From Sycon ciliatum (taxonomy: Eukaryota > Porifera > Calcarea > Leucosolenida > Sycettidae): a DNA stretch of 64,000 nucleotides. The position numbers were made by a program, and so were the translations under genes. Below are positions 13,698-60,400 of this stretch, in pieces (within the stretch, counting starts at the first letter, position 1; every line of letters starts with the position of its first letter). The notes below the pieces were generated by a model. That model was not told the origin of the DNA. It saw nothing but the letters and a program-made list of their open reading frames with translations, and searched no databases. The stretch spans positions 15,290,647 through 15,354,646 of the forward strand of contig NC_088649.1 of the NCBI RefSeq assembly GCF_964019385.1, written 5' to 3'.

Positions 13698-13881
13698 AGA
13701 CTTTAGTGTTCAGTTGAATCTGAAGGATCCGAGGGATCTGAGATCTGGATCCCGATCCCGATCCTTACTAATCGAACATGCCCCAAGAGTCCATCTTGGT
13801 CTGACACTTCACGGGTGACTTGTAGTTTTTATTGTGACTTGTACGAGTACTGCGCCAACATGCACGAATAGGAAAGAGGAC
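13698..13881. other. Short host spacer ending in the BEL/Pao target site
   Basis: Includes GGATC-rich short repeats at about 13725-13765. The last ~60 bases match, on the other strand, the loop of the foldback repeat near 36005-36065. AGGAC at 13877-13881 is the left target-site duplication of the retrotransposon. Confidence 0.7.
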
Positions 13882-21030: not shown

Positions 21031-21042
21031 AGGTGGGGAGAA
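21031..21042 (+). other. Polypurine tract of BEL/Pao element
   Basis: AGGTGGGGAGAA directly abuts the first base of the 3' LTR, the usual place for second-strand priming. Confidence 0.75.
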
Positions 21043-22906: not shown

Positions 22907-24733
22907 AAAAAAGAAAAAATGTGATATGGAAAAAAATGTGATGAACAAAAAATTTGTACTTCGAACTAGTTTTCGCACAACACTCCTCAGGAAGCTACGT
23001 TGTACTAATTAAAAACAATCCAGAAAGATACTAATAAAGAGAAATGGAGTGAGAAGAAACAACACCTATGAAAATGATAATCCTAGCACTAAGGTAATAA
23101 CAGGAAAAACTGCGAAAGCAATTAACGAACTTGTAAGGACTACTAGTATACTGTGACACAAGATATGACACCATGGCCAACCAGAGCCAAACCGACAGAA
23201 CAAGCTGCCACTAAAACAATTTCAAACGAATAATGCTGTCCTTCTGGACACACAGATCAGGCTTATGAATACGTTGACAAACAGCTTCTAACACACTCAA
23301 CTGCAACTTATAACCATGACGAGCACGGCACAAAACAGAAAAAGAAGAATCAGAATACACCTTGCAACAATCAGGACGAGATGCAAGATGCTTATACACT
23401 GATGACTTCCTACTAGAAAACACACGCTCGCACCCACTCTTACTCACACAATCATTCTCGCTCTCACACTCACCGGAATCACTGGACTCACTGGCCGAAT
23501 CCTCCTCAACGACGTCCTGCCTCGGAGCAATCAGGTCCCGTCTCCTCCCATCCCTCGTCTCACGTTCCTGTTGTGTATTACGTTGGCTCGGTACTTCCGT
23601 ACTGAAATAGGTCATGGTGTAATTAGCAGTTGTTCTTCTGGGTCTCGTTGATATTGAGGTAGGTATTTTTGTCGTCTCTGCCGGTGATGCAGCAAGCGAT
23701 GCTGATGCAAACGTGTCTGCATGCAACACACGTGGCGTCGCCGAAGCCACATCCACCTCCGCTGGTGGAGGGAGTGACTTGGTCATGGCCACGGGAGCCA
23801 ATGGTGGACTTGCCGAGTGGGACGCTAGGTCCTGTGTTGGCGGAGGTAGTGGTTGTTTACGGGGTCTTCCCCGCGTGGGACGCTCCAGTTGTGCGCTACG
23901 TGGGATAATGTGTAAAGGAGTGTGTTGCTTGATGCGTTCGCTCAGGTGCTGAACAGTCCTACCAACATACCGGCTAGCACAATTCCGGCATTCAAAGTTG
24001 TAGATTACATGACTTAAATGATGGGTTGGTAGGACGTCCTTCAACACCGTGAACGAACGCATCGTTGTGTAGACGGGTATGAAGTGTACCGCATAGTAGG
24101 TTTGTTTGATGATCGCACGAACTTCACGACTCACATTGTCAGACTTCTTGCCCTTCCATGGTAAGCACAAAAAGACGGGACAACGAGCAGGCCCTATCAA
24201 TTCATGTTTCGGCGTGGGGGCTGTAGACAACAGTTCTGCCAACATGTCGCCTGGGTATCCGTTTTTGGTGAAAACTGAACGGAGAAATTCGAGCTCACCA
24301 CTGAGTTTACAAGGCGAACAGATCCGTTTGGCGCGATCCACGAGATTCTTTACTAAGTTGACTTTATAATTAGATGAACAGTACGAGTCATAGGAAATGT
24401 ATTGTCCGGTGAATGTCGGTTTACGATACACCGATGTTACGCTACCAAATTCGGTTTTCTCAACAAGTACGTCGAGGAAGGATAACTTGCTTGACTGCTC
24501 GTGCTCACATGTGAAGCGGAGGGAAGGGTGAAGGTTGTTGAGAGCACCAAGAAAGACCTCGCTGTCTTCTATGGAATCAAAGTATGTGAAAGAGTCATCA
24601 ACGAAACGGAAATAGAGACTCGGCCATAGAGACGCATCAATCTTGCACTCACAGTAACCGACAAAGACATTAGCTAACACGGGACCCAACGGAGAGCCCA
24701 TGGCTACTCCATCTATCTGCTTATACATCACGT
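22907..24733 (-). mobile_element. Penelope-like element copy, left arm of head-to-head pair
   Basis: Mirror of 24737-26349, extending about 210 bp further 5' at the centre. The 3' untranslated part (22907-23210) contains CCTGAGGAGTGTTGTGCG on the minus strand. Being 5'-truncated and placed in inverse next to another truncated copy is common for Penelope-like insertions. Confidence 0.85.
23211..24731 (-). pseudogene. Penelope-like reverse transcriptase with GIY-YIG region, 5'-truncated
   Basis: About 506 codons open to the truncation point. It starts in the reverse transcriptase with the motif DGVAMGSPLGPVLANVF and the catalytic-type FVDD (RFVDDSFTYFD, near 24595). A thumb region follows (SFLDVLVEKTEFG, SVYRKPTFTGQYISYDSYCS). 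Next is a GIY-YIG-type endonuclease start (HVIYNFEC..CASRYVGRT..H). It then has a GRPRK AT-hook-like stretch, an acidic/Ser region, and a C-terminal part ending LSVLEAVCQRIHKPDLC. Full elements carry the rest of the RT upstream; here it is missing, so the copy cannot be autonomous. Confidence 0.9.
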
Positions 24734-24736
24734 CAC

Positions 24737-26044
24737 ATGTTCACATGTGAGCACGAGCAGTCAAGCAAGTTATCCTTCCTCGACGTACTTGTTGAGAAAA
24801 CCGAATTTGGTAGCGTAACATCGGTGTATCGTAAACCGACATTCACCGGACAATACATTTCCTATGACTCGTACTGTTCATCTAATTATAAAGTCAACTT
24901 AGTAAAGAATCTCGTGGATCGCGCCAAACGGATCTGTTCGCCTTGTAAACTCAGTGGTGAGCTCGAATTTCTCCGTTCAGTTTTCACCAAAAACGGATAC
25001 CCAGGCGACATGTTGGCAGAACTGTTGTCTACAGCCCCCACGCCGAAACATGAATTGATAGGGCCTGCTCGTTGTCCCGTCTTTTTGTGCTTACCATGGA
25101 AGGGCAAGAAGTCTGACAATGTGAGTCGTGAAGTTCGTGCGATCATCAAACAAACCTACTATGCGGTACACTTCATACCCGTCTACACAACGATGCGTTC
25201 GTTCACGGTGTTGAAGGACGTCCTACCAACCCATCATTTAAGTCATGTAATCTACAACTTTGAATGCCGGAATTGTGCTAGCCGGTATGTTGGTAGGACT
25301 GTTCAGCACCTGAGCGAACGCATCAAGCAACACACTCCTTTACACATTATCCCACGTAGCGCACAACTGGAGCGTCCCACGCGGGGAAGACCCCGTAAAC
25401 AACCACTACCTCCGCCAACACAGGACCTAGCGTCCCACTCGGCAAGTCCACCATTGGCTCCCGTGGCCATGACCAAGTCACTCCCTCCACCAGCGGAGGT
25501 GGATGTGGCTTCGGCGACGCCACGTGTGTTGCATGCAGACACGTTTGCATCAGCATCGCTTGCTGCATCACCGGCAGAGACGACAAAAATACCTACCTCA
25601 ATATCAACGAGACCCAGAAGAACAACTGCTAATTACACCATGACCTATTTCAGTACGGAAGTACCGAGCCAACGTAATACACAACAGGAACGTGAGACGA
25701 GGGATGGGAGGAGACGGGACCTGATTGCTCCGAGGCAGGACGTCGTTGAGGAGGATTCGGCCAGTGAGTCCAGTGATTCCGGTGAGTGTGAGAGCGAGAA
25801 TGATTGTGTGAGTAAGAGTGGGTGCGAGCGTGTGTTTTCTAGTAGGAAGTCATCAGTGTATAAGCATCTTGCATCTCGTCCTGATTGTTGCAAGGTGTAT
25901 TCTGATTCTTCTTTTTCTGTTTTTTGCCGTGCTCGTCATGGTTATAAGTTGCAGTTGAGTGTGTTAGAAGCTGTTTGTCAACGTATTCATAAGCCTGATC
26001 TGTGTGTCCAGAAGGACAGCATTATTCGTTTGAAATTGTTTTAG
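24737..26044 (+). pseudogene. Penelope-like RT/GIY-YIG fragment, second copy
   Basis: 435 codons, nearly identical to the left copy but truncated further, so it lacks the FVDD catalytic motif. It starts at FTCEHEQSSKLSFLD and runs through the GIY-YIG-type segment to the same C-terminus. Only a handful of differences from the left arm were seen (for example FCRARHG versus LCRARHG), so the two copies are recent. Confidence 0.9.
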
Positions 26045-26349
26045 TGGCAGCTTGTTCTGTCGGTTTGGCTCTGGTTGGCCATGGTGTCATATCTTGTGTC
26101 ACAGTATACTAGTAGTCCTTACAAGTTCGTTAATTGCTTTCGCAGTTTTTCCTGTTATTACCTTAGTGCTAGGATTATCATTTTCATAGGTGTTGTTTCT
26201 TCTCACTCCATTTCTCTTTATTAGTATCTTTCTGGATTGTTTTTCATTAGTACAACGTAGCTTCCTGAGGAGTGTTGTGCGAAAACTAGTTCGAAGTACA
26301 AATTTTTTGTTCATCACATTTTTTTCCATATCACATTTTTTCTTTCTTC
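24737..26349 (+). mobile_element. Penelope-like element copy, right arm of head-to-head pair
   Basis: Inverted relative to the left arm, with a centre of only a few bases at 24732-24736. The shared 3' part ends near TTTTTCTTTCTTCC at about 26349. An AATAAA lies shortly beyond, near 26391. Confidence 0.85.
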
Positions 26350-27079
26350 CACGTTCTTCACTGCCTTCGTATCCACTCGTTTTTTGAAAACAATAAAAGC
26401 CTTTGTGAAATGTCGGTTCAGCTCGTTCTGTTGATCGCAATTCTAAAACTATTGTCGCCTCGACGCCTATTTAAAAAAAGAAAAAAAAGAAAAAAAGAGA
26501 AAAAAAACCTTGATGTTGTTGTGTACACTGTGTGCATGAGAGGGTAAAAAGTAAAAAAATAAAAATAAAATCCTCCCGCCCTCCCCGATTTTTCCAAAAA
26601 AAAGGACGATCATCTAGTAATTTTTTTTACTCGGCCTAAAGCAGTTTTTATTGCTACTCCCTCCCTCCTTAAGCCTTCTAGTATATTAAGGGTGCGTTCT
26701 TAAATTCTCTAGCTTCTAGGAGAAGAAGAAAAGAGAAGTCGAAGAAACTGGGATTCTTCAAGAACGGGTCTCGAAGAATTCGGAGATATTTTGCAGATGT
26801 CAAGCAAAATGAAGCGCCAAAGGGGCCGCGATCTTGAGTGCCACGAATATAGTATGCGCTGTGCGTATTCGAAAAGGGAAATGCGTACACTCATGAACAA
26901 ATTACCGCCTGTAAAAAAAAAAAAAATCAACACGTGGCTTTTCGTTAATTTCTTACTTTCTAGACGGGGTCCATGGACTTACACAATAACTTTTTTTAGA
27001 AAACTGCCATAAAGCAGTGCGGAGCTCCGCCAGATTTGCTTGCGCAAGTCGGCTGCATGCGGCGGCACGGCGGAGTGCG
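26350..27079. other. Non-coding, repeat fragments
   Basis: A-rich stretches at 26470-26515. 26600-26665 is the inverse of sequence near 22670-22700 and ends in GCAGTTTTTATTGCTA, the terminus of the foldback repeat seen at 35822-36238. 26940-27013 is another copy of that repeat's arm. No gene. Confidence 0.6.
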
Positions 27080-38727: not shown

Positions 38728-38784
38728 AATAATTATTATTATCAAAAGACAATAATAATATTATTAAATTATTATTATTAAAAG

Positions 38785-39001
38785 ACAATAAAACGATGAA
38801 AATATGAAGAAATGGTGTAGGGAAAAGTAATTTATTTTATTATGGATTCAAACAAGTTTTCTTACAACACTCATCAGGAATCGTCGTTGTACTAAAGGAC
38901 ACTGAAACAAAAATTGACGATTCCTGATGAGTGTTGTACGAAAACTTGTTTGAATCCATATTTTTTCCCTACACCATTTCTTCATATTTTCATCGTTTTA
39001 T
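38785..39001. mobile_element. Foldback made of Penelope-like 3' ends
   Basis: Two inverted arms share AAACGATGAAAATATGAAG at the outside and TTCCTGATGAGTGTTGTACG near the centre. The inner motif is close to CTTCCTGAGGAGTGTTGTGCG in the 3' part of the Penelope-like pair at 22907-26349. The arrangement is again head to head, but only 3' sequence is left. Confidence 0.65.
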
Positions 39002-39575
39002 TGCACATCGTCTCCACCGTTTTTACATTAAAAGACAAGTCAATCATTGAATGTAGTTTATATTTGTTCTTGCAAAAAGTGCAACTCTCTCGGCCACTCC
39101 GGCCACTGGCACTGGCTATATTATAGTATAGCGTCACGACGCCAAGTTCTTGTGTGACCAGAGTGACAGTACGGGTAGAGGATTCGTCGAAGCTTAGCTG
39201 GCCGCTTGCTTTTCCTATCCTATTATTATGACAAGAATTGTCCGACTAAGTACGTGGAAAATGCGGTGCACAAGGAGCTGGCTGACGGTATCAAGTAACT
39301 TAGTTTTTGCTGAGCCTAGAGGCTTTGGATTTCTGCCTGCTCGTGGTAGAGGTAGGAGAGTAGAGTTCTTTCCGGCCATTTGCAACTGTCGCTCCAGGTA
39401 AGGCATGACGTTAGGAAAGATAAGTACTGAGGCCACCGCGCACCAGTGGTGACCTACATTGTAACTACACCTACTACTGCTGTTTTCTCTCAGAAACTCG
39501 ACACTTGCGAGCTAGATAAAAAAAACACCTCTCTGTCAGACCAGCGTGGCACTGGACATTGAACATTGTCTTGGT

Positions 39576-39744: not shown

Positions 39745-39874
39745 CTGGGGAGAATACCGCCAAGGGCAAAGCTGCTCTTTTCTTTGCTGCTCGTGGTGCT
39801 GGCAATCGACACATGTAACGCAGAATGCCCTAAAGGCAAACATCAAAGTGGCAACGCTACCAGCCCCTGTGTTC
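39745..39874 (+). CDS. Putative signal-peptide exon of modular EGF protein
   Basis: After a pyrimidine-rich acceptor (...GTTTCACAG) the frame reads a basic stretch (PPRAK), a hydrophobic core (LLFSLLLVVLAI) and a likely cleavage region (DTCNA), then ECPKGKHQSG..SPCV. It ends in phase 1 at a GTAAGT donor. This is a credible secretion signal. The frame is closed by a stop at 39715-39717 with no ATG after it, so the start codon must come from an upstream exon, or the acceptor is wrong. The phase matches the next exon (A1). The last 15 bases recur at 57836-57850 as part of a chimeric exon. Confidence 0.6.
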
Positions 39875-40687
39875 GTAAGTTGTCACAATGTACAGCTTGT
39901 ACCCAATATCTTGATCAGGTCTGACCTCTACTCCTGACCTGGCCTTGGTAGCACTATGATAAGTTTGAATCCGGTGAACACTGCATTTTTGCTTTTGCCT
40001 TCGGGGCCTGACGCACTTTACAAAACCACTCTGTGACGAGCCAAATTGCAATGATAGAGTGTAGTACGGCACACTATTATTCATGGGACTGTGTTCTTCA
40101 TGCAAGTGCTTGCAGCGGCAGTGGCAACCCAGCCGATTTACTTGCCCCAGGCGCTGCTACGTCTGACTCTGAAATTTCCCGCGTTTTCGTCAGTTGCCAT
40201 GGAAAAAATTCACGATTCAGACGCTGACGCACTATTTCTGACATAGTGCGATCGGGGCCTGATCCCTTGCCACATCTGATGCCAAAACGTCTAAGGACAG
40301 AGAATAAGAGATCGAGGCAAGGTGTTCAAAATTGCGCCAGGTAGGCCATGGCAAAATGTATGGAGAAGCAGATCCCGGACCCAGATTCAAACTGTGGATA
40401 GTCTCAATCCGGCCTAAAATTTGACTTTCCAGCGGGACTATCGTGTATGAATGGACTGCATTGGAATATGCATTTATGTATTTGCCGTGGAGTATTCCAG
40501 TAATAGTACCCTGGATATGCCTCCCTATTGGCTTCAAATAATGGTGGAATAAGGCCTACATTTGCTGCGATTCGAGTTTCATGTTTGTGCGATCATCCAT
40601 ATTGGCAAAACCATTCTGCATTGGCTCATGGGTCCACTTTTCTTCATTTTGGTGACGCAAAGTTATTTTAAGTACAGCCCTTGGATA

Positions 40688-41050
40688 CGAAGTAGTGGTA
40701 GCGACTTCGGCGATGATTTGTAAGAATGGTTTGCTCCCCACACCGGAGCTCGCGCTATTCCGCGGAGCGTCTCTGTAAGTTTGTATCCCTGGTGATGTTT
40801 GTGCCTGGAGAGCACTATATAAGTGGTGCTCTTCAGGCACAATCTTCCTCAGCCTACTCAAGCTCAACTGATGAGGGGTGAATTCCCCGAAACACTGTGT
40901 ATTGAGCAGGGAGTGGTGCTTTCTTGCAGGTTTGCCGAGTCGAAGGTTCGATGGACTTCTCGTGTGCTCTGGATGGCAGTCGTGAGTCAGTCAAGTGTCA
41001 AGTAAAGTCGGCGGAATAGCGCGAGCTCCGGTGTGGGGAGCCCTTGGATA
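40688..41050. mobile_element. Hammerhead-bearing insertion in intron 1
   Basis: Absent from the duplicated intron, where AGCCCTTGGATA occurs once and is followed directly by GTCCATA. Here AGCCCTTGGATA occurs at 40676-40687 and again at 41039-41050, a 12-bp direct repeat bounding about 351 bp. Inside are a long inverted pair (GCTCCCCACACCGGAGCTCG near 40733 and its inverse near 41021-41040), a strong hairpin at 40801-40840 with TATATAA in its loop, and a hammerhead ribozyme. It has no coding capacity. It could be a small ribozyme-bearing retroelement; the class is not established. Confidence 0.8.
40851..40920 (+). ncRNA. Type I hammerhead ribozyme
   Basis: All core elements are in order. Stem I 5' strand GCTCAA (40862-40867), then CTGATGA (40868-40874). 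Stem II is GGGG-TGAATT-CCCC (40875-40888), then GAAA (40889-40892). A short stem III CA-CTG-TG (40893-40899) is followed by TA, giving a GUA cleavage triplet at 40899-40901. Stem I 3' strand TTGAGC (40902-40907) pairs fully with the 5' strand. Stem I extends outward after an internal loop through ACTC/GAGT and AGC/GCT. The very short stem III resembles hammerheads of Penelope-like elements and animal retrozymes. Cleavage is predicted after A40901. Confidence 0.88.
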
Positions 41051-41308
41051 GTCCATATATTATGGAACATTTCCTGAAACGCTGCAGGGGACTGATGGTT
41101 GGGTAATCGTGGTCAGTTTGAATAGCAGTTTTCTATCATATAATTATACTTTTTCGTTTTGTGAAAATTATCGATAATGCCGGATGGCCCCTTAAAGTGT
41201 TCTCTCAAATTTTGTATCTGAGCTCGAGTGTATGTCTTATCGGAGCATGTGCCTGGTGAGTTGCACAGTACCTGATTGTGTTCTGAATATGCACTGTGTT
41301 GTGTTCAG

Positions 41309-41686
41309 CTCTCAAGACCATCTGCCCAGGCACAGATAAGGCAATGTACTCCTGGATGGCTCTCGCTGGCTTGCCGGTTCATCCGCACGCTAACGAGCCC
41401 AGCCTCACGGAAAAGGCCAATCTGAGGCAAGCCCGCCGTTTATGCCAGCGTCGAGGATACGACGTGATCGATTATAGCGCCTTCACCAACAGGACCAAGG
41501 GCGTGCGCGGCTGCATGGAAGCATTGCTCCAAAAGATGATGGCGAGCACTTACGGCAGCACTATCATCGTATGGACGTCGCACGTGTACAGAGGGGAGCA
41601 TGTCCTTTTCAAGCAGGACAAAAACAACCATGATGAAGCGGTATTTGACCGGGCTGGAACAACCCTTAATGACGTCATTTGCGAAG
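41309..41686 (+). CDS. Module A exon, copy 1 (A1)
   Basis: 126 aa, phase 1-1, acceptor GTGTTCAG and donor GGTAGG. Four cysteines: near the start (TICPG), in ARRLCQRRGYDVI, in RGCMEALL, and at the end (NDVICE). The layout A..LC..RGY.VI....F, a central IxVWTS and a terminal cysteine recalls a divergent C-type-lectin-like fold. That is a guess from spacing only; calcium-site motifs are not evident. It is probably extracellular, given the signal exon and EGF neighbours. It is almost identical to A3 (58887) and more distant from A2 (49924). Confidence 0.78.
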
Positions 41687-42733
41687 GTAGGCTGTTGCCT
41701 TTTTAGCCACATGGGGGAATGCTCAGGGCAGCAGGGCAAGCAGTGAAAGCACAGGGTAGGGACATTAACAGGGTAGGAGACATGAACGCAGAGAAATAAA
41801 CAACAGCATGTGTGCCTCACAACCCGGGCTCCCCGCTCTAATGGGCGACTTACTGTTGTAGGTCGTACCGGGGACAAAAACTGGGTAACCAGTGAAGGAA
41901 CAATGCCCATTCCATTTTATGTACAGAGTGAAATGCCATCGCATGGACTATCCTGTCCCATTGGAAAAACTCGGACAAGAATTCTGAATTCCGCGGCAAA
42001 TAAAATCCGCGGGGAAAAGAGGGTAATTCTGCGCCACTTTCTGCAGTAACATCAAAAATCTGCGGCATTTTCTGCATGTTTTTCATCCTCCTTGTAAAGG
42101 ATATGCAGAAAGGAGTACTTTTTGCACTATCCTTTGCTTTTTTTACTTTCCTTTTCCACCAACTGATTAGGAGTGAAGAATCTTGGAGAGACCTTCACTC
42201 GCCTTGACTGGCAAGAGCAATGTGTTCAAACAGATCCCAAAGTAGCTTTTCTGCAGCTTTCTCATCAGTAATTTACCTGCAAAATTCAGATTCCGGGGGA
42301 CCGCCGGCAAAGTTGGACATTGCCCAGCTCTTGCGATCTGCCCCATACAAATTTGGCCAACAGTGGTCTGTGAACCATTCACGCCGGTGATCGCCGGTGC
42401 CGGGAGCCAGACTTTGTCAACATTTCAAACCAAGACTCATCCTAAATTTTCCTAAATTGAAGCTAAAGATGAGGTCCATTCGTGTAGAAGTAGTTTCATG
42501 ATCTCCGGTAAAAGGTAGCACCGAGTGGCCATCACCGAACGGCATTGAACTACGGAAGAACAAAGAATTCAGGCTTCAATTGGCAAATCTGTCGTAGTAT
42601 TTGGGCGCATTCTGTACTACTTTGTAGTAGATTTGGTACTCGCACCGTATGCGCAACGGGTCGGGAGCTGGCTCACCGCCGATTTCTTGCGATCTCTTGC
42701 GGCACCGATTTTGCGTATGTGAACCAACCCTTA

Positions 42734-46430: not shown

Positions 46431-47417
46431 TAACGTTTTAACGCTGCCGCTTCAGCGCTATTTGGGTGATGAAGGTGCGAGTACCGTAAAAATAGCATTA
46501 CTGTTATTTGATAAGGGTGTCTATTCCCAGTCCAAAAAAATTCCCAATCCATCAAGGGTGAGTAAGCGGTCACGTGCTCATGCGTACACCAGTCACCTGG
46601 TCGCCGTGCCTGCAGGCTACGCCGTTGACAGCGTTCCTGTCACTCGAGTTGCACCTTTGAACCTTTGATTTGAACCTTGGTGTGAAAGCTGTAGCATGCA
46701 CTGGCCCTGCATGCATGGTGACCATATGACTCGTGTACGAGTACGCATGAACACGTGACCGCTTGCTTGCATTTTCTCTGTGTCAGCTGCTCGGTCATTA
46801 TGGGTGGTCAAATTTCACTATTTCCACTGCTCATTGAGTATGGGGTCATTCGTAGATATCAAGGGTTATTCTTTTGAATACAAATTATTTCTGTTATGAG
46901 CTGGGACGGGTTGACCAATTTCCTTTCAGGATACATTGAAACATGTCCAGAGAAGTAGGAGCATTGACACACGCGTGACAGGGTGCTGTATATGCACGTT
47001 CTGAGAGGAGGGGTATAGGGTGGGTTTGAGTTGTAAATATCGATACTTACGGCCGGCCCCTAATGGGCCATTTACACTACGGTCAGAACGTGGCGTACGT
47101 GACGTTTTCGTCATGACAACATGGAACGTAGCGGGAAAATCGTACCTCTGGTACGAAATCGTAGACGACGTATCCAGACTCCTGTACCGAGTTTTGTTCT
47201 GTCGTTCCCAGCAGTTTGTGTCCAAGAGAAGCTGAACACGCAGCTGTATGAGCAGCGTCTGAGTGCCTGTGTGAATGCACCTGCATGAAAACGACGTATG
47301 CCTGTACGTCGTGCTCCAAAACGTCACGCGTATTGTAACGTAGTATGAATAGCCTATAACATACCATCATTTCCTCTTTCTCACGTCTTGTTTGTGCGTA
47401 TGCGATGGCTGATGCAG

Positions 47418-47504
47418 CATGCGACTGTTTGAATCAAGGTCATTGTGACGACACGGGTAAATGCATCTGCCCGAAAGAATTTACCGGTAACAAGTGCCAA
47501 TCGG
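47418..47504 (+). CDS. EGF-like exon E1, copy 1
   Basis: 29 aa, phase 1-1; acceptor GATGCAG, donor GGTAAGT. Complete six-cysteine EGF-like spacing: C.C....HC....KCICP..F.G.KC. Glycine and aromatic positions before the last cysteine fit an extracellular EGF repeat. Near-identical to 55474-55560, with one residue change (T to K). Confidence 0.9.
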
Positions 47505-48427
47505 GTAAGTATGAATGAATATTTTTTACAGCTCTTATGGGATTCCCAAAGCATACCTCCATGTTGACGTGGCATCCAGTGACTGTGTGAGCCGTTTCCG
47601 TTTCAACAAACCAACGGATAATTATATAATAAAACAATTGAAAAGACAAGCTGAGCCAACATTTGTGTAATTTAATTGATAGCTTGCATAGACCTCGGTC
47701 CTACCCGTAGGACCTACCGGTAGGACCATCATACAGAGACATGCTGCACAGTCTTTGTTATGACACTGACCTAAAACCTGACCCTAAACTGTTGCTATGG
47801 GGCTAATGAATGAGTCCACAGATTTTAGACGTGATCGCAGAAGGTATACTATGAAATTCCATGGAAATAGCCCATGGTTACCATGGAAACGTACTATGGA
47901 ATACTAACGTACTATGGAATTTTGCATTCCACCGCCTTGGCAGGCTAATGTTGTAATGAAAACATTAGGTCTTCGCCATGATTCACTTTGGACAGTGTCT
48001 CTAGAGCTCCGACACGAGCATGTGCGGCCGTTTTGACAATTATTAAAATGGCACATATGCAATGCTCTGGCCAAAGTCTTGAATTTTACGCCATTACTGT
48101 GCCTTATAAAGACCCAACATCAACAATTGTTTCCAGAAAATTCCCCAATAAAAAGCACTTTTGCGCCGCGATTTTTTGGAGCTGTGTCGAGTGACCCTGA
48201 GTATGCAGCCTTTGTCTGTGTTTCAACTATGTGTGAAGAAAGTAGAACCCCATTTATTTTTATTTTTATGATGAGTTCGACTCCCTACTGGACTTCTGAC
48301 TGTTTATAGGACAATGGCTGCCTACTGAGTAAAACATCTATTTGTCTCTCAGTCTTTTTGTCTGTCCATTTTTGCGCTGATTTACTCTCCTGTTTTCTTT
48401 CCCCTCGGTGTGTGATATGCGATGCAG

Positions 48428-48508
48428 TTGTGTGCACGAATCCCTGGGTGAAAAAGAACAAAGAATGTGAATGTAAACCCAGACTAGATGGACCTAAGTG
48501 CACAGAAG
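48428..48508 (+). CDS. EGF-like exon E2, copy 1
   Basis: 27 aa, phase 1-1; acceptor GATGCAG, donor GGTAAGG. It reads VVCTNPWVKKNKECECKPRLDGPKC: four cysteines, with the C-terminal EGF half (CxC..G..C) intact and two N-terminal cysteines missing. Identical to 57248-57328. Confidence 0.82.
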
Positions 48509-48847
48509 GTAAGGGCTAAATAAACAGCTGTAATATAATATAAGGGGAAAAGAAAGATGCTGTCATTTTAGGCCGCGTGTCAACGAGTGTATGACCCATG
48601 GGTATATTTACAATTTCTAGAATCATACTCATCATTGGAAGGAAAATATTTCTCTCTTATCTCGGTGGAGCAAACTCAAACCACCAACCTATTTTGTGCT
48701 ATTTACGTGCAATAATAGATACCATATAATTGATTATATGGGTACGAGTTGGTGATACTAACTTCTTTAGGGTCTGATATTGTATGGGGGTCTGTTGCTA
48801 TCTGTGTGTTTTGGGAAATACGTGAATGCACCCAATCTCTACTGCAG

Positions 48848-48934
48848 TATGCCATTGCTTGAATCATGGGAAGTGTGCTGAAGACGGTACCTGCGTCTGC
48901 CAGAAAGGTTTCCATGGAGACCTGTGTCAACAGA
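48848..48934 (+). CDS. EGF-like exon E3, copy 1
   Basis: 29 aa, phase 1-1; acceptor CTACTGCAG, donor AGTAAGT. Full six-cysteine EGF-like repeat: VCHCLNHGKCAEDGTCVCQK then GFHGDLC. Same residues as 57668-57754. Confidence 0.9.
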
Positions 48935-48991
48935 GTAAGTAACTTCTGAATGAAATGAATAATTATGCATGTTTCTTTGAAACACATGCAG

Positions 48992-49041
48992 CTGCGAAAT
49001 GTGAAAATTATGCTCAGGGGATGTGCATTTTACTCAGATAA
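48992..49041 (+). CDS. Possible terminal exon E4, copy 1
   Basis: Acceptor ACACATGCAG is followed by AAKCENYAQGMCILLR and a stop (49039-49041), starting in phase 1 like its neighbours. No donor is obvious before the stop, so it may end the copy-1 protein. An AATAAA lies at 49490-49495. Its first half is reused at 57812 in the chimeric exon. Confidence 0.5.
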
Positions 49042-51833: not shown

Positions 51834-53095
51834 CTTCCCAGCCCCATGCCTGCAAATATTGACCGATACCTTAACCTGGCTCGGAATAAAGAAAAACAAT
51901 TGCACTGACTTATTGGGTTGCATTGAGATAGATTTCAGTGCACCCTTTATTCATATTGCGTATATGTATTTTCTACCCACCACTGGATGTGCCCTTGTCT
52001 TTCAGCCAAGTGGCTTCACGACAACAACTCAGCATATACCGTAGCAACCCCAGCATCCAGACGCATTGTCACTGAGCCATTCGCAGAGGAGGCATGTCAG
52101 CAGTACGGACTTCAGCTCGTAACCGAAGACTGGCTGCGAGCACATGGCGATGTATTAAGAGAGCGCGGGCTCGAGAGGTTGGCTCTGAAGCATGAACGTG
52201 ACCAAGGCGCTTACCACGTCAAGGCAATCCGGGTCAATGGTGGCTCCCTTTACAGAACCGTAACATTTAGCGAGAACAATCAAGAGTTTCACCACACGAG
52301 AAGCAATGACAGAGCCCAAATCCTCTGTGTCGGTAAGTGAGATCATGATAAGTGTAACGTAGTAGTGTAGCGCTAGTCGGGGTCAGCAGCGCTGTATTTC
52401 GTATGTGTATTTCGTATGTGTATGTGTACGTGTGTGTATGTGTGTATGTGTGTGTGTGTGTGTGTGTTTATTTTGGTTTGAATTTGAATTCTTTATTCTC
52501 ATGATGGCCCCATCGCCAATAAGAGATACATTTATGAGAAGGTGAGATTGTGGGTTATGCAGTTGGAAAGTGATTTACATTACTTTGAATTTGGTTATAC
52601 TGTACGTTGAAATCCGCTGAGAGTTAAGTGGCCATGGGGCGCTGGCCGTACAGCCATGAGCACTGCTGGTCTTTGCTGACAGTTCTCTGATAAGACAGAC
52701 GACTGGTGTGTACGACTGACTTTTCAGCAGGGCTGCAACAGGTAGGGGTTTGGTTGGGCAACGAGTTCGGGTATGTTTATCCGGGTAGCACGGATACCCT
52801 ATCAGGCACTTGCACTACATAAGAAAGTGTACAGTAAGCAGGTGGCCATGCTTTTTACATGCATTGTTGTGGCAAACAAATTCACGGTTCGCGCTGGAAG
52901 CCGAGTTTTCCGTATCCGTAGGAACGCCACAACCCTTCAAGGAAACCCTTCTACAATACAATAATAGTTATTCTTAGTTATAATTATCCACTGAATAAAG
53001 ACCCCCATTGATTTGTGACCACAGATTGGTCATAAAAACGAATCAGAAAAATAAAAGCTGTTAATAAAAACTTCTCAGCACTATACAAGTTGTAA
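51834..53095. repeat. Segmental duplication block gamma, copy 2
   Basis: Near-identical to 60229-61490 at a constant offset of about 8395, covering exon B2 and flanking introns. Similarity resumes at 53096-53570 against about 61739-62525. Confidence 0.92.
52006..52332 (+). CDS. Module B exon, copy 2 (B2)
   Basis: 109 aa, phase 1-1; acceptor GTCTTTCAG, donor GGTAAGTG. It reads AKWLHDNNSAYTVATPASRR, then VTEPFAEEACQQYGLQLVTE, DWLRAHGDV and terminal AQILCV. Cysteines as in B1. Differs from B3 at only a few residues. Confidence 0.8.
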
Positions 53096-54235: not shown

Positions 54236-55473
54236 TTTATGTACATGTAGAGGGAGCAGTTAATCGAGGATAGGCTAAGGAAATAGATCGGAGCATACAA
54301 AATCTGGTAATTAAAGAGTTGGGATACCGTCAGTGTAATGTGACCACTATTTATAGCTAGATGGAGTGTGTAATGCCTGACGTGTGTGTAGCCTGCAGTT
54401 TCACATACAACTCCGTGTATTTCATTGAGAATTCTCACAACTTGAATGCTACTATGCTCACATGATCAGAAGTCTTCTCTGGAATAATAGCCCCCCCCCC
54501 CTCCCACACCCTGTAATGACCGTTTTTTTTTTAAAATGCAGAATTTTGAAACTTTCCTGTGGCTCCATAACGTTGCAGCTTCAGCGCTATTTGGGTGATG
54601 AAGGTGTGAGTACCGTAAAAATAGCGTTACCGTTATTTGATAACGGTGTCTATTCCCAATCCCAAAAAAATTTGACAGCATTCCTGTCACTCGAGTTGCA
54701 CCTTTGAACCTTTGATTTGAACCTTGGTGTGAAAGCTGTAGCATGCACTGGCCCTGCATGCATGGTGACCAGGTGACTCGTGTACGAGTACGCATGAACA
54801 CGTGACCGCTTGCTTGCATTTTCTCTGTGTCAGCTGCTCGGTCATTATGGGTGGTCAAATTTCACTATTTCCACTGCTCATTGAGTAAGGGGTCATTCGT
54901 AGATATCAAGGGTTATTCTTTTGAATACAAATTATTTCTGTTATGAGCTGGGACGGGTTGACCAATTTCCTTTCAGGATACATTGAAACATGTCCAGAGA
55001 AGTAGGAGCATTGACACACGCGTGACAGGGTGCTGTATATGCACGTTCTGAGAGGAGGGGTATAGGGTGGGTTTGAGTTGTAAATATCGATACTTACGGC
55101 CGGCCCCTAATGGGCCATTCACACTACGCCCAGAACGTGGCGTACGTGACGTTTTCGTCCGGATAGCCATGACAACATGGAACGTGGCGGGAAAATCGTA
55201 CCTCTGGTACGAAATCGTAGACGACGTATCCAGACTCCTGTACCGAGTTTTGTTCTGTCGTTCCCAGCAGTTTGTGTCGAAAAGAAGCTGAACACGCAGC
55301 TGTATGAGCAGCGTGTGAGTGCCTGTGTGAATGCACCTGCATGAAAACGACGTATGCCAGTACGTCATGCTCCAAAACGTCACGCGTATTGTAACGTAGT
55401 ATGAATAGCCTATAACATACCATCATTTCCTCTGTCTCACGTCTTGTTTGTGCGCATGCGATGGCTGATGCAG

Positions 55474-55560
55474 CATGCGACTGTTTGAATCAAGGTCATT
55501 GTGACGACAAGGGTAAATGCATCTGCCCGAAAGAATTTACCGGTAACAAGTGCCAATCGG
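55474..55560 (+). CDS. EGF-like exon E1, copy 2
   Basis: Same acceptor, donor, length and phase as 47418-47504. Six-cysteine EGF-like repeat; GKCICPKEFTGNKC is conserved. Confidence 0.9.
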
Positions 55561-56283
55561 GTAAGTATGAATGAATATTTTTTACAGCTCTTATGGGATT
55601 CCCAAAGCATACCTCCATGTTGACGTGGCATCCAGTGACTGTGTGGGCCGTTTCCGTTTCAACAAACCAACGAAATTGTTAAATAAAACAATAAAACAAT
55701 TGAAAAGACAAGCTGAGCCAACATTTGTGTAATTTAATTGATAGCTTGCATAGACCTTGGTCCTACCCGTAGGACCTACCGGTAGGACCATCATACAGAA
55801 ACATGCTGCACAGTCTTTGTTATGACACTGACCTAAAACCTGACCCTTAACTGTTGCTATGGGGCTAATGAATGAGTCCACAGATTTTAGACGTGATCGC
55901 AGAAGGTATACTATGAAATTCCATGGAAATAGCCCATGGTAACCATGGAAACGTACTATGGAATTTTTCATTCCACTGCCTTGGCAGGCTAATGTCGTAA
56001 TGAAAACATTAGGTCTTCGCCACGATTCACTTTGGACAGTGTCTCTAGAGCTTCGACAGGAGCATAGGCGGCCATTTTGACAATTGATAAAATGGCACAT
56101 ATGCAATGCTCTGGACAAAGTCTTTTGCGCCATTACTGTGCCTTATAAAGACCCAACATCAACAATTGTATCCAGAAAATTCCCCGGCAAAAAGCACTTT
56201 TGCGCCGCGATTTTTCGGAGCTGTGTCGACTGACCCTGAGTATGCAGCCTGTGTTTCAACTATGTGTGAAGAAAGCAGAACCC

Positions 56284-57082
56284 CATTTTGCTCAAGTGCT
56301 AGGTATACATGCAGCATCAGGTTCAAGTGCCTCAAATCATGCACTCAGGAGTACCTTGACTCTGCCAAGGAAAAGTGAAGAGAGCCGCCGTTCCACAACG
56401 ACATTATGGAATTGTTATGTCAAGTGATTCCTAGTTGATTCTGGCGCGTTTGTTTGGTCAGGTTATTCTTACCCATTCCCATTCCAGAATGGTTGTCATT
56501 TACATTCTGGAAATGCCCAACGAAACGCAATCTAATATTGCAGCAGCCAAGACTACAGACTTTAGATTGCCTTGAAGCAGAAGAAAAGACCAAAGCGGTC
56601 ACTTTCTCGAGTCCTGGTGGTGATGGTCAATGTTTTCTCCAGACTGTTCCCATTTACATCTTTCCCTCAAACCAATGAAGTGAAGACCAATGAGTTTAAA
56701 CGGTCTCCGTTGCTGTACACCAGTGCTATACGTGCAGTATTTGCACCGAAGGGATGGCTGGCCTCCAAGCTACGTCAAGTTCTGCTAGAATGTCGACTAG
56801 CTGGCGATGGTGTCCTTTCCACTGGCTTCAGCTCCCTGTGTGAGCGGCTCAAACGCAGACTCCAAGACTCCGACTGTCGTTATAGCTGCTCTGTCTTGCG
56901 TTGAGTGCAGGTGCGCAGTTCAAGCTATTCTACACCCAGTCTATGACTGGATGATGTGGGCACATGATCCCAACTGACGAAAACTCAGACTGCGCACTGG
57001 AAATGTGTCGAACTGTGGAAATGTGTAGACTTTCTACAGAGAAAGTCGCCCGCGTTTAACGGAGTCGTGCAAATATGACGGT
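56284..57082. other. Copy-2-specific insertion of about 800 bp
   Basis: Replaces a short T-rich stretch (about 48247-48268) of copy 1. It contains an open frame at 56572-56904 (110 codons, basic) that resembles nothing I recognise. Ends lack obvious inverted repeats; nature unknown. Confidence 0.6.
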
Positions 57083-57247
57083 ATGATGAGTTCGACTCCC
57101 TACTGGACTTCTGACTGTTTATAGGACAATGGCTGCCTATTGAGTAAAACATCTATTTGTCTCTCAGTCTTTTTGTCTGTCCATTTTTGTGTCTGGCTGA
57201 TTTACTCTCCTGTTTTCTTTCCCCTCGGTGTGTGATATGCGATGCAG

Positions 57248-57328
57248 TTGTGTGCACGAATCCCTGGGTGAAAAAGAACAAAGAATGTGAATGTAAACCC
57301 AGACTAGATGGACCTAAGTGCACAGAAG
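57248..57328 (+). CDS. EGF-like exon E2, copy 2
   Basis: Identical in protein sequence and splice sites to 48428-48508. Four-cysteine partial EGF-like repeat, phase 1-1. Confidence 0.82.
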
Positions 57329-57667
57329 GTAAGGGCTAAATAAACAGCTGTAATATAATATAAGGGGAAAAGAAAGATGCTGTCATTTTAGGCCGCGTGT
57401 CAACAAGTGTATGACCCATGGGTATATTTACAATTTCTAGAATCATACTCATCATTGTAAGGAAAATATTTCTCTCTTATCTCGGTGGAGCAAACTCTAA
57501 CCTCCAACCTTTTTTGTGCTATTTACGTGCAATAATAGATACCATATAATTGATTATATGGGTATGAGTTGGTGATACTAACTTCTGTAGGGTCTGATAT
57601 TGTATGGTGGTCTGTTCCTATCTGTGTGTTTTGGGAAATACGTGAATGCACCCAATCTCTACTGCAG

Positions 57668-57754
57668 TATGCCATTGCTTGAATCATGGGAAGTGCGCTG
57701 AAGACGGTACCTGCGTCTGCCAGAAAGGTTTCCATGGAGACCTGTGTCAGCAGA
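57668..57754 (+). CDS. EGF-like exon E3, copy 2
   Basis: Same residues as 48848-48934, phase 1-1, six cysteines. Confidence 0.9.
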
Positions 57755-57811
57755 GTAAGTAACTTCTGAATGAAGTGTATAATTATGTATGTTTCTTTGA
57801 AACACATGCAG

Positions 57812-57850
57812 CTGCGAAATGTGAAAATTATGCTTCCAGCCCCTGTGTTC
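57812..57850 (+). CDS. Chimeric exon at the duplication junction
   Basis: 39 bp, phase 1-1, reads AAKCENYASSPCV. The first ~23 bases come from exon E4 (compare 48992-49014) and the last 15 from the end of the signal-peptide exon (compare 39860-39874), including its GTAAGT donor. GCT is shared by both parents at the breakpoint. The new exon keeps frame and would link copy 2 to exon A3. Confidence 0.72.
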
Positions 57851-60061
57851 GTAAGTTGTCACAATGTACAGCTTGTACCCAACATCTTGATCAGGTCTGA
57901 CCTCTACTCCTGACCTGGCCTTGGTGGCACTATGATAAGTTTGAATCCGGTGAACACTGCATTTTTGCTTTTGCCTTCGGGGCCTGACGAGCCAAATTGC
58001 AATGATAGAGTGTAGTACGGCACGCTATTATTCATGGGTCTGTGTTCTTCATGCAAGTGCTTGCAGCGGCAGTGGCAACCCAGCCGATTTGCTTGCCCCA
58101 GGCGCTGCTACGTCTGAATTTCCCGCTTTTTCGTCAGTTGCCATGGAAAAAATTCACGATTCAGACGCTGACGCGCTATTTCTGACATAGTGCGATCGGG
58201 GCCTGATCCCTTGCCACATCTGCCAAAACGTCTAAGGACAGAGAATAAGAGATCGAGGCAAGGTGTTCAAAATTGCGTCAGGTAGGCCATGGCAAAATGT
58301 ATGGAGAAGCAGATCCCGGACCCAGATTCAAACTGTGGACAGTCTCAATCCGGCCTAAAATTTGACTTTCCAGCGGGACTATCGTGTATGAATGGACTGC
58401 ATTGGAGTATGCATTTATGTATTTGCCGTGGAGTATTCCAGTAATAGTACCCTGGATATGCCTCCCTGTTGGCTTCAAATAATGGTGGAATAAGGCCTAC
58501 ATTTGCTGCGATTCGAGTTTCATGTTTGTGCGATCATCCATATTGGCAAAACCATTCTACATCGGCTAATGGGTCCACTTTTCTTCATTTTGGTGACGCA
58601 AAGTTATTTTAAGTACAGCCCTTGGATAGTCCATATATTATGGAACATTTCCTGAAACACTGCAGGAGACTGATGGTTGGGTAATCGTGGTCGGTTTGAA
58701 TAGCAGTTTTCTATCATATAATTATACTTTTTCGTTTCGTGAAAATTATTGATAATGCCGGATGGCCCCTTAAAGTGTTCTCTCAAATTTTGTATCTGAG
58801 CCCGAGTGTATGTCTTATCGGAGCATGTGCCTGGTGAGTTGCACAGTACCTGATTGTGTTCTGAATATGCACTGTGTTGTGTTCAGCTCTCAAGACCATC
58901 TGCCCAGGCACAGATAAGGCAATGTACTCCTGGATGGCTCTCGCTGGCTTGCCGGTTCATCCGCACGCTAACGAGCCCAGCCTCACGGAAAAGGCCAATC
59001 TGACGCAAGCCCGCCGTTTATGCCAGCGTCGAGGATACGACGTGATCGAATATAGCGCCTTCATCAACCCGACCAAGGGCGTGCGCGGCTGCATGGAAGC
59101 ATTGCTCCGAAAGATGATGGCGAGCACTTACGGCAGCACTATCACCGTATGGACGTCGTACGTGCACAGAGGGGATCATGTCATTTACAAGCAGGACAAG
59201 AACAACCATAGGCAAGCGGTATTTGACCGGGCTGGAACAACCCTTAATGACGTCATTTGCGAAGGTAGGCTGTTGCCTTTTTAGCCACATGGGGGAAAGC
59301 TCAGGGCAGCAGGGCAAGCAGTGAAAGCACAGGGTAGGGACATTAACAGGGTAGGAGGCATGACCGCAGAGAAATAAACAACAGCATGTGTGCCTCACAA
59401 CCCGGGCTCCCCGCTCTAATGGGCGACTTACTGTTGTAGGTCGTACCGGCGACAAAACATGGGTAACCAGTGAAGGAACTATCCCCATTCCATTTTATGT
59501 ACAGAGTGAAATGCCATCGCATGGACTATCCTGTCCCATTGGAAAAACTCGGACAAGAATTCTGAATTCCGCGGCAAATAAAATCCGCGGGGAAAAGAGG
59601 GTAATTCTGCGCCACTTTCTGCAGTAACATCAAAAATCTGCGGCATTTTCTGCATGTTTTTCATCCTCCTTGTAAAGGATATGCAGAAAGGAGTACTTTT
59701 TGTACTATCCTTTGCTTTTTTTACTTTCCTTTTTCCACCAACTGATTAGGAGTGAAGAATCTTGGAGAGACCTTCACTCGCCTTGACTGGCAAGAGCAAT
59801 GTGTTCAAACAGATCCCAAAGTAGCTTTTCTGCAGCTTTCTCATCAGTAATTTACCTGCAAAATTCAGATTCCGGGGGACCGCCGGCAAAGTTGGACATT
59901 GCCCAGCTCTTGCGATCTGCCCCATACAAATTTGGCCAACAGTGGTCTGTGAACCATTCACGCCGGTGATCGCCGGTGCCGGGAGCCAGACTTTGTCAAC
60001 ATTTCAAACCAAGACTCATCCTAAATTTTCCTAAATTGAAGCTAAAGATGAGGTCCATTCG
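57836..60061. repeat. Segmental duplication block alpha, copy 3
   Basis: Near-identical to 39860-42482, without the hammerhead-bearing insertion and with a few small indels. After 60061 similarity to copy 1 stops abruptly. Confidence 0.93.
58887..59264 (+). CDS. Module A exon, copy 3 (A3)
   Basis: 126 aa, phase 1-1, same splice sites as A1. A few substitutions cluster in the second half (SYVHRGDHVIYKQ versus SHVYRGEHVLFKQ). Cysteines are conserved. No stops, so it is probably functional. Confidence 0.78.
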
Positions 60062-60400
60062 CCATTCTTGTAGTCGTTTCAAGGTGGCGAATTAATTCAG
60101 CATATCAACCCATCCTTCTCGGATGATCTGCATGACTGTTGTGCAACTTTCGAGACAAATACAATTGAAAGAAGTAAAGAAATACAAAGGATACATAGAC
60201 AAGCTCATGTGACTTCCCAGCCCCATGTCTTCCCAGCCCCATGCCTGCAAATATTGACCGATACCTTAACCTGGCTCGGAATAAAGAAAAACAATTGCAC
60301 TGACTTATCGGGTTGCATTGAGATAGATTTCAGTGCACCCTTTATTCATATTGCGTATATGTATTTTCTACCCACCACTGGATGTGCCCTTGTCTTGCAG
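59265..60400. other. Intron between A3 and B3
   Basis: Left part copies 41687-42482 and right part copies 51834-52005. Between them, 60062-60228 matches neither. A 16-bp motif CTTCCCAGCCCCATG is doubled at about 60213-60243. The MITEs present in copy 1's intron are absent. Confidence 0.75.

What the first reader, a model, noticed from the sequence alone, without database searches (positions are those of the whole stretch)
40851..40920. Complete type I hammerhead ribozyme inside an intronic insertion
Every conserved core element (CUGAUGA, stem II with G-C closing pair, GAAA, GUA cleavage triplet) is present in order. Stem I pairs over 6 bp and extends outward. The match is too long and structured to be chance. 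The very short stem III is like that of Penelope-like elements and animal retrozymes.
Basis: partly seen in the sequence, partly recalled or inferred. Interest (0 to 1): 0.87.

Follow-up and report, generated by a model that had tools for sequence, protein, structure and literature searches.

The report
Twin-armed retrozyme copied by Penelope-like machinery
The hammerhead ribozyme sits in a short, very abundant mobile element whose copies look as if one small RNA, probably a circle, was copied into DNA from both edges of a chromosome break, in the way Penelope-type jumping genes insert, which bears on the open question of what moves these ribozyme elements in animals.

Summary
The motif is real: a complete type I hammerhead at 40854-40916 (+), predicted cleavage after A40901. 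Rfam's type I model misses it, although it finds another hammerhead family of this genome. The motif occurs 4,964 times (up to 3 mismatches) in the 538-Mb eukaryotic genome; reversed-pattern control 0.

It lies in a 351-bp insertion with a 12-bp target duplication; a paralogous copy at 58.5 kb keeps the empty site. The insertion is a truncated copy of a 480-nt head-to-tail repeat, a retrozyme.

Of 63 inserts examined, 40 have two arms meeting head-to-head with 3' ends outward; none is plus-then-minus (two are compound). In 31 of 33 scorable two-arm inserts (29 of 31 with stricter limits) one arm ends at site A, the other about 35-45 nt further at site B. Units within an insert are mostly near-identical; between inserts they differ. 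(TTA/TAA)n flanks 31 of 63.

Outward 3' ends, a tail on one arm and AT-rich targets are published marks of Penelope-like elements, which this genome carries. Best reading: circular retrozyme RNA reverse-transcribed from both target ends by Penelope-like machinery. Circles, catalysis and the partner element are untested; I found no description of this architecture for retrozymes.

The parts
40676..40687 (+). left target-site duplication AGCCCTTGGATA
   Evidence: 12-bp direct repeat; single copy at the empty site 58617-58628 in the paralogous duplication
40688..40766 (-). left arm: short minus-strand retrozyme copy (monomer about 105-188, ends at site B; carries the tail)
   Evidence: blastn to the 480-nt monomer of L020: 86% over 85 columns
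40688..40732 (-). tail segment present only on the left arm, with hairpin CGAAGT...ACTTCG around an AC-rich loop
   Evidence: the part of the left arm outside the 34-bp inverted repeat; comparison with 43 B ends and 54 A ends
40763..41038 (+). right arm: plus-strand retrozyme copy (monomer 342-480 then 1 to about 134-138, ends near site A)
   Evidence: blastn to the L020 monomer: 97.1% over 275 bp
40816..40823 (+). TATATAAG in the loop of a hairpin (arms 40789-40815 / 40826-40852); Inr-like TCAG at 40849-40852; possible internal promoter (inference)
   Evidence: sequence, inverted repeat I2
40854..40916 (+). type I hammerhead ribozyme including the outer stem I helix; predicted cleavage after A40901
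   Evidence: 4,964 places in the genome
41039..41050 (+). right target-site duplication AGCCCTTGGATA
58541..58778 (+). empty site in the tandem segmental duplicate (97% identical flanks, no insert)
22907..26473 (.). Penelope-like element pair, head-to-head, 3' ends outward, each arm with a minimal hammerhead (22990 -, 26265 +); ORFs 23211-24731 (-) and 24737-26044 (+)
   Evidence: Pfam gave nothing for these two ORFs; the longer 1030-aa frame of the same family in L068 has sub-threshold RVT_1 (25.0 of 29.6 bits) followed by GIY-YIG (16.4 of 22.6 bits)
38777..39038 (.). second Penelope-type insertion, head-to-head, hammerhead at 38924 (+) and a degraded one at 38877 (-), 12-bp target duplication ATTAAAAGACAA at 38777-38788 and 39027-39038, ends of unequal length

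Best explanation
The ribozyme belongs to a non-autonomous retrozyme with a 480-nt repeat unit. Inferred cycle: transcription, possibly from the element's own TATA box; hammerhead cleavage of multimers, most readily as a dimer because stem III can pair between two copies; ligation of the 480-nt monomer into a circle by host ligase; binding of a tail hairpin near monomer position 140-190 by a Penelope-like reverse transcriptase/GIY-YIG nuclease, probably as a dimer; cleavage of AT-rich, often (TTA)n, DNA on both strands; and reverse transcription primed from both target ends, one at site A and one at site B of the same RNA, each running part of the way or several times round the circle. The two cDNAs are joined head-to-head in the middle and the gap repair leaves a duplication of about 11-15 bp. 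Shown here in the inserts examined: architecture, end sites, A+B rule, near-identity of units, target preference and one empty site. Inferred: circle, enzyme, dimer and promoter.
For: Empty site and 12-bp duplication. Monomer 480 nt, five hammerheads in tandem. 63 inserts: -+ 40, - 11, + 10, -+-+ 2, +- 0. One A end and one B end in 31 of 33 two-arm inserts with both ends classed, A/A 2, B/B 0; 29 of 31 with stricter limits; 0 of 100,000 shuffles reach either. In the 100 listed of 278 places of a stem III loop variant, adjacent pairs under 1 kb are -+ 14, +- 0, same strand 15. Full-length units within an insert differ at 0-1 positions in 13 pairs from four inserts; between inserts minimum 1, median 20, n = 262. 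Opposite arms identical over 130 nt in 12 of 18 inserts; shuffled partners mean 4.3, maximum 9. Rare loop II variants recur in both arms of the same insert in 6 clusters. Inner ends of the two arms lie within 20 nt of each other in monomer coordinates in only 5 of 40 two-arm inserts, so the arms end independently. (TTA/TAA)n beside 31 of 63 inserts versus 54 of 2220 background windows. PLE copies here lie head-to-head and, by reading, end at more than one place in (TTA)n. Published PLE marks: head-to-head inverted pLTRs, 31-bp tail optionally on one, 8-10-bp duplications, simple AT-rich targets (PMC3846280, passages); two start sites, AC-rich stem loop, both strands cut and extended, ATT preference (PMC11167929, part 1 and passages).
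Against: No RNA data: circles, cleavage and expression are untested. The tail sequence is not convincingly related to the PLEs I could read (mononucleotide-shuffle p 0.28, 0.064, 0.017; 0, 27, 27 and 51 of 196 windows score higher), so no partner PLE is identified. The window's large PLE pair has ends about 125 nt apart, not 35-45. 21 of 63 inserts have one arm only, and for 17 of 63 no flanking repeat of 7 bp or more was found. In 6 of 18 inserts the arms differ at 1-5 of 130 positions (5 in L059, 3 in L002), and 3 of 36 same-arm pairs are not identical. One ribozyme-core variant (A14) occurs in two tandem units of one insert, so a dead ribozyme was copied or duplicated at least once. Near-identical units could also come from a uniform tandem source read as a long linear RNA.
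Confidence: 0.66

Rival explanations
1. Same retrozyme moved by Penelope-like machinery, but the template is a linear, uncleaved multimeric transcript of a uniform tandem locus, not a circle; the ribozyme serves another step or none.
For: [quoted passage not shown] One core-mutant two-unit insert exists. The loop II versus core comparison alone is not significant (1/65 vs 6/67 events, p 0.115).
Against: Units inside one insert are 0-1 differences apart in 13 pairs, against a median of 20 between inserts; one arm reaches 2,477 nt, which needs a source with at least five identical uncut units. Including the stem III loop variant, core variants occur less often in multi-unit inserts (1/65 vs 24/138 events, p 0.0009).
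Confidence: 0.19
2. Head-to-head arms arise by self-priming (snap-back) of one cDNA, the explanation that PMC3846280 prefers for Penelope elements, so only one target end is primed.
For: That paper notes palindromes at the inverted junction of rotifer PLEs and proposes self-priming on an antisense template. Five of 40 inserts here have inner ends within 20 nt of each other.
Against: In 35 of 40 two-arm inserts the inner ends are more than 20 nt apart in monomer coordinates, up to 238, so there is no palindrome at the junction; the outer ends are unequal, A versus B, in 31 of 33, whereas a snap-back copy should mirror its own start.
Confidence: 0.07
3. Moved by a different reverse transcriptase (such as a LINE) that merely coexists with Penelope-like elements.
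For: No sequence kinship between the retrozyme tail and the two PLE families read here was established. Sea-anemone repeats with 15-bp duplications were likened to LINE insertions (PMC4918200, passage).
Against: Two fixed 3' ends 35-45 nt apart on opposite arms with outward 3' ends are described for PLEs; from recall, they are not the rule for LINEs. PLE copies in this genome share the (TTA)n targets.
Confidence: 0.06
4. DNA-level origin: a MITE or palindromic/satellite amplification with terminal inverted repeats.
For: The window copy has a 34-bp near-terminal inverted repeat.
Against: The arms differ in length from insert to insert, the two ends are unequal in 31 of 33 cases, and head-to-tail units run through the ribozyme cleavage site.
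Confidence: 0.02

Closest known systems
Metazoan non-LTR retrozymes (Cervera and de la Pena 2020, PMC7229834; parts 1-3, passages and discussion read)
   Same: type I hammerhead, non-coding tandem units of a few hundred nt, thousands of copies, target duplications longer than 4 bp, coexistence with PLEs
   Different: unit is 480 nt (published about 170-400) with 52% GC (published below 50%); the word 'inverted' does not occur in that paper's main text, so twin arms are not described there; cleavage triplet GUA and a 3-bp stem III with a 3-nt loop
Penelope-like elements with minimal hammerheads (PMC3846280 passages; PMC11167929 part 1 and passages)
   Same: head-to-head inverted arms, tail on one end, AC-rich hairpin at the reverse-transcription start region, simple AT-rich targets, TATA and Inr-like motifs in the terminal repeat
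   Different: unit far too short for the RT-nuclease protein; a fuller ribozyme than the minimal ones; different sequence from the PLE hammerheads in the same window
Amphibian satellite / axolotl retrozymes (described in PMC7229834)
   Same: weak stem III, predicted to work better as a dimer
   Different: sequence; those units are 330 and 350 bp
Plant LTR retrozymes (PMC4918200, passages; PMC7761336, passages)
   Same: hammerhead-processed non-autonomous retroelement
   Different: mostly type III ribozyme, LTRs with PBS/PPT and 4-bp duplications; here type I and a 12-bp duplication

Membership tests
type I hammerhead ribozyme | CUGANGA core, stem II, GAAA, NUH triplet and stem I in type I order | tested here: met
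type I hammerhead ribozyme | match to Rfam RF00163 | tested here: not met
   control family in L023 matches at 35.4 bits
type I hammerhead ribozyme | self-cleavage | not testable with these tools
   needs in vitro transcription
metazoan retrozyme | short tandem units each with a type I hammerhead | tested here: met
   L020: five hammerheads at 480-nt spacing; many listed pairs at 477-482 nt
metazoan retrozyme | unit size about 170-400 nt | tested here: not met
   480 nt
metazoan retrozyme | GC content below 50% | tested here: not met
   52% for the L020 unit, 53% for the window insert
metazoan retrozyme | target duplications longer than 4 bp | tested here: met
   12 bp with empty site; 11-15 bp at inserts outside microsatellites such as L011, L051, L052, L059; none of 7 bp or more found for 17 of 63
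metazoan retrozyme | circular RNA in tissue | not testable with these tools
   no transcriptome
metazoan retrozyme | no LTR, PBS or PPT | not tested
   PBS and PPT were not searched for
metazoan retrozyme | host is an animal | not tested
   species unknown; eukaryotic transposons in the window, 538 Mb genome
Penelope-like element | ORF with telomerase-like RT and GIY-YIG nuclease | tested here: not met
   480-nt unit is too short to hold it; hence works like, but is not, a PLE
Penelope-like insertion mechanism | head-to-head arms with outward 3' ends | tested here: met
   40 of 63 inserts -+, 0 of 63 +-, 2 compound -+-+
Penelope-like insertion mechanism | optional 30-40-nt tail on one end | tested here: met
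   31 of 33 or 29 of 31 with one A and one B end; tail about 35 nt
Penelope-like insertion mechanism | simple AT-rich targets | tested here: met
   31 of 63 vs 54 of 2220 background windows
Penelope-like insertion mechanism | palindrome at the inverted junction (as in rotifer PLEs) | tested here: not met
   inner ends within 20 nt in 5 of 40
Penelope-like insertion mechanism | tail sequence shared with a PLE of the same genome | tested here: inconclusive

The most novel reading that the evidence does not exclude
Each insertion is the record of one circular ribozyme RNA held by a dimer of a Penelope-like reverse transcriptase that starts copying at two different sites of the same RNA, A for one target end and B for the other, and rolls round the circle from both sides until the cDNAs are joined. 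This would settle how retrozymes move in animals, and give the two PLE start sites a physical meaning: one start per subunit.
Probability: 0.4. Interest if true: 0.8.

Novelty: new variant of a known kind. Interest (0 to 1): 0.62.

Why it matters
Animal retrozymes were described in 2020 with the mobilising enzyme left open; Penelope-like elements were called a strong or likely candidate from shared ribozyme type, tandem arrangement and coexistence (PMC7229834; PMC7761336). Here a family of some five thousand ribozyme copies in one genome, of which 63 inserts were examined, carries insertion marks of Penelope-like elements: outward 3' ends, a tail on one of two arms, AT-rich targets. Because an insert can hold several units in two arms, rare sequence variants act as natural barcodes that tell which units came from the same RNA. 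That makes circle templating, start-site pairing and the need for ribozyme activity testable from genome sequence alone, in any species with such elements.

Tried and rejected
Rfam as proof: no hit, and shown to be a limit of the model for this family. Thermodynamic stability of the bare motif as evidence: z -0.56, dropped. TIR transposon reading: rejected, see rivals. Sequence match between the retrozyme tail and PLE ends: not convincing (broke off before its third unit). Selection on the ribozyme core: variants at core G5 23 places, G8 24, A14 19 against loop II G 47, loop II A 30 and stem III loop 278 (of which the 100 listed were analysed). Multi-unit events sharing a variant: 1 of 65 core versus 6 of 67 loop II (p 0.115); only with the stem III loop variant added does it become 24 of 138 (p 0.0009). 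I treat this as suggestive only. The event counts for searches were made by eye; two neighbouring units with different letters at the loop II G (C12:4383517, 4383996) were counted as two events. Exact ribozyme in viral contigs: 0. DNA search of the own genome with 200 bp found nothing, not even the window itself, presumably because very common words are skipped.

Limits of the sample: the inserts come from 67 partly overlapping loci (30, 37 regions) plus the window; one search gave 65 rows, of which two (L018, L019) were dropped as partial views of L020, leaving 63. All but the window copy lie in the first 16.3 Mb of contig C1 and most were chosen by an exact ribozyme match. L006/L007, L061/L063 and L065/L067 look like duplicates of one another and were kept; without L067 the strict A/B count is 28 of 30. 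A and B ranges (90-165, 178-195) were set after seeing the end positions; 7 of 40 two-arm inserts with an end outside them were left out of the 33, and 9 of 40 with the strict A range 130-165. The two compound inserts (L055, L066) contain an internal plus-minus neighbour and were left out of the A/B test; they look like two inserts side by side. In one search one within-locus pair (L035, 13 differences) was dropped because it joins two separate inserts. Automatic duplication calls inside microsatellites are not meaningful. In one search low within-insert identities came from segments running past the arm; one search repeats the test inside the arms.

Full report
What is in the window. The sequence at 40854-40916 on the + strand reads as a complete type I hammerhead: stem I GCUCAA/UUGAGC extended by CUACUC/GAGUGG across an AA/AGG internal loop, CUGAUGA, a 4-bp stem II with a 6-nt loop, GAAA, a 3-bp stem III with a 3-nt loop, and GUA ending at A40901. 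A strict type I descriptor found no hit in 10.88 Mb of simulated sequence of the same composition. Rfam does not recognise it at the levels tried, while the same Rfam model recognises another hammerhead family of this genome in L023 (three units 352 bp apart, 35.4 bits).

It is an insertion. A tandem segmental duplicate in the window (39.9-42.5 kb versus 57.8-60.1 kb) lacks the ribozyme segment. The flanks match at 97% on both sides and overlap by 12 bp at 58617-58628, which occur twice around the insert as AGCCCTTGGATA. The insert is 351 bp plus the 12-bp duplication.

It is one of thousands. The window lies in a genome of 538 Mb in 313 contigs, species not named. The 40-letter ribozyme pattern occurs 2511 + 2453 times at up to three mismatches; the reversed control pattern never. 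Listed places are often 477-482 bp apart in tandem. From L020 I took a real 480-nt unit, numbered from the base after the cleavage site. The window insert is a truncated copy: a right, plus-strand arm (monomer 342-480, then 1 to about 134-138) and a short left, minus-strand arm (about 105-188). The 34-bp 'terminal inverted repeat' is the overlap of the two arms.

Architecture across copies. Of 63 inserts, 40 are minus-then-plus, 11 minus only, 10 plus only, 2 compound (minus-plus-minus-plus), and none plus-then-minus. Thus in the two-arm inserts the RNA 3' ends point outward to the target DNA. In the 100 listed of 278 places of a stem III loop variant, adjacent pairs under 1 kb are 14 minus-plus, 0 plus-minus and 15 same-strand. 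The outer ends cluster at two places (end coordinates). Site A is at about 139-161, typically ...GGAGCAAACCCTTTCTTA before the target, and site B is at about 181-192...GCAACCACTACTTCGTA; 8 of the 54 ends classed A lie earlier, at 96-123. Among 33 two-arm inserts with both ends classed, 31 have one A and one B, 2 are A/A and none B/B; with A limited to 130-165 it is 29 of 31. None of 100,000 shuffles reached either count. The segment between, about 35 nt, contains a hairpin with an AC-rich loop (read). (TTA/TAA)n lies beside 31 of 63 inserts, against 54 of 2220 background windows; 237 places in the genome join the B end directly to TTATTATTA.

One template per insert, mostly. Full-length units inside an insert differ at 0-1 positions in 13 pairs from four inserts (L020, L038, L048, L051), including plus versus minus arm in L051; between inserts the minimum is 1 and the median 20 of 262 pairs. 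The two arms of an insert carry an identical 130-nt stretch in 12 of 18 inserts, against a mean of 4.3 and a maximum of 9 for shuffled partners; in the other 6 they differ at 1-5 positions, most in L059 (5) and L002 (3). Rare loop II variants recur in both arms of one insert, for example five units at C11:2811456-2813033, and in five other clusters. Nineteen of 80 arms exceed one unit and the longest is 2,477 nt. A circle copied by rolling reverse transcription from both sides explains this most simply; a long linear transcript of a uniform locus is the main rival.

Two ends primed, or snap-back. PMC3846280 explains head-to-head Penelope copies by self-priming, from palindromes at the inverted junction (passages). 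In the retrozyme inserts the inner ends of the two arms lie within 20 nt of each other, in monomer coordinates, in only 5 of 40, and the outer ends are unequal. Both speak for two independent cDNAs.

Kinship to Penelope-like elements. The window itself holds two Penelope-type insertions with minimal hammerheads of different sequence (22990, 26265, 38924): one head-to-head pair of about 1.8 and 1.7 kb and one short head-to-head insert with a 12-bp duplication and unequal ends. The large element matched all 97 places scored of 9,693 first-look candidates in the genome and has a 3.3-kb tandem arrangement in L068. Its 1030-aa frame there shows RVT_1 followed by GIY-YIG, both below Pfam's cut-offs (25.0 of 29.6 and 16.4 of 22.6 bits); the Penelope label otherwise rests on recalled features. 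By reading, copies of a second PLE family end in (TTA)n at two places about 25 nt apart (L047, L061), and the first family ends in (AAT)n in L068. These are single copies; the A/B rule was not counted on PLEs. In the literature, PLEs have head-to-head inverted pLTRs, a 31-bp tail optionally at one of them, 8-10-bp duplications, TATA and Inr-like motifs in the pLTR and simple AT-rich targets (PMC3846280). The anole PLE enzyme cuts and extends both strands, prefers ATT, and starts reverse transcription at two sites in an AC-rich stem loop that define the tail (PMC11167929, part 1 and passages). Retrozyme papers call PLEs likely mobilisers (PMC7229834; PMC7761336, passages; PMC11722881, passages).

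Is it in print? The main text of PMC7229834 holds no 'inverted'; in PMC7761336, PMC11722881 and PMC4918200 the passages with 'inverted' concern other things. Searches listed no paper on head-to-head retrozyme arms, judged from listings. Most subscription papers are not held, and Cervera and de la Pena 2014 was not available. I therefore say 'not found', not 'new to science'.

What weakens the case. The retrozyme tail does not show a convincing sequence match to the two PLE ends I could read, so the partner family is not known. The large PLE pair in the window has ends about 125 nt apart. For 17 of 63 inserts no flanking repeat of 7 bp or more was found. The anole enzyme inserted RNA without ribozyme activity, and one A14 core variant occurs in two tandem units. 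Selection on the core is suggestive only. No RNA evidence exists here.

Mechanism. Shown in the sample: insertion with duplication, two outward arms, paired A and B ends, near-identical units, target preference. Inferred: transcription from the TATATAAG at 40816 (Inr-like TCAG about 35 nt downstream), dimeric ribozyme action (stem III of two copies pairs over 8 bp with a U.U mismatch, -7.5 kcal/mol), circle formation, and a two-subunit Penelope-like enzyme that primes one cDNA at A and one at B.

Noticed in passing
L023:179-926 (+): A second retrozyme-like family: three canonical GUC hammerheads 352 bp apart, recognised by Rfam, beside a Penelope-type hammerhead on the other strand (L023:1259).
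   Followed up: partly
L032:1404 and L063:79 (+): A third hammerhead family with a longer stem II (CTGATGAGCCGTCACGAACCATACGGCGAAAC), below the Rfam threshold in L063 (26.8 bits; L032 not scanned).
   Followed up: no
window 39856-42482 versus 57832-60061, 46625-49014 versus 54672-57834, 51834-53090 versus 60229-61498: Large tandem segmental duplications (about 94-98% identity) across the right half of the window.
   Followed up: no
window 14959-21012 (+): Open 2017-aa BEL/Pao-type retrotransposon polyprotein (Pfam Peptidase_A17, DUF5641, DUF1759, Integrase_H2C2) with 99.8% direct repeats 13879-14467 / 21040-21628 around it, so probably a recent insertion.
   Followed up: partly
window 2239-4781 (+): hAT-type transposase split over several frames (DUF4371, Dimer_Tnp_hAT).
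   Followed up: no
L063:729-999: Two tRNA matches (49.4 bits each) on opposite strands 127 bases apart, about 0.9 kb from a retrozyme insert.
   Followed up: no
G000 C12:4383517 and 4383996: Two adjacent retrozyme units on the same strand carry different substitutions (T and A) at the same loop II position, an exception to unit identity.
   Followed up: no
G000 C7:27163942 (-) and 27164046 (+): Two facing retrozyme copies about 100 bases apart carry different variants, one at core G5, one at the loop II G.
   Followed up: no
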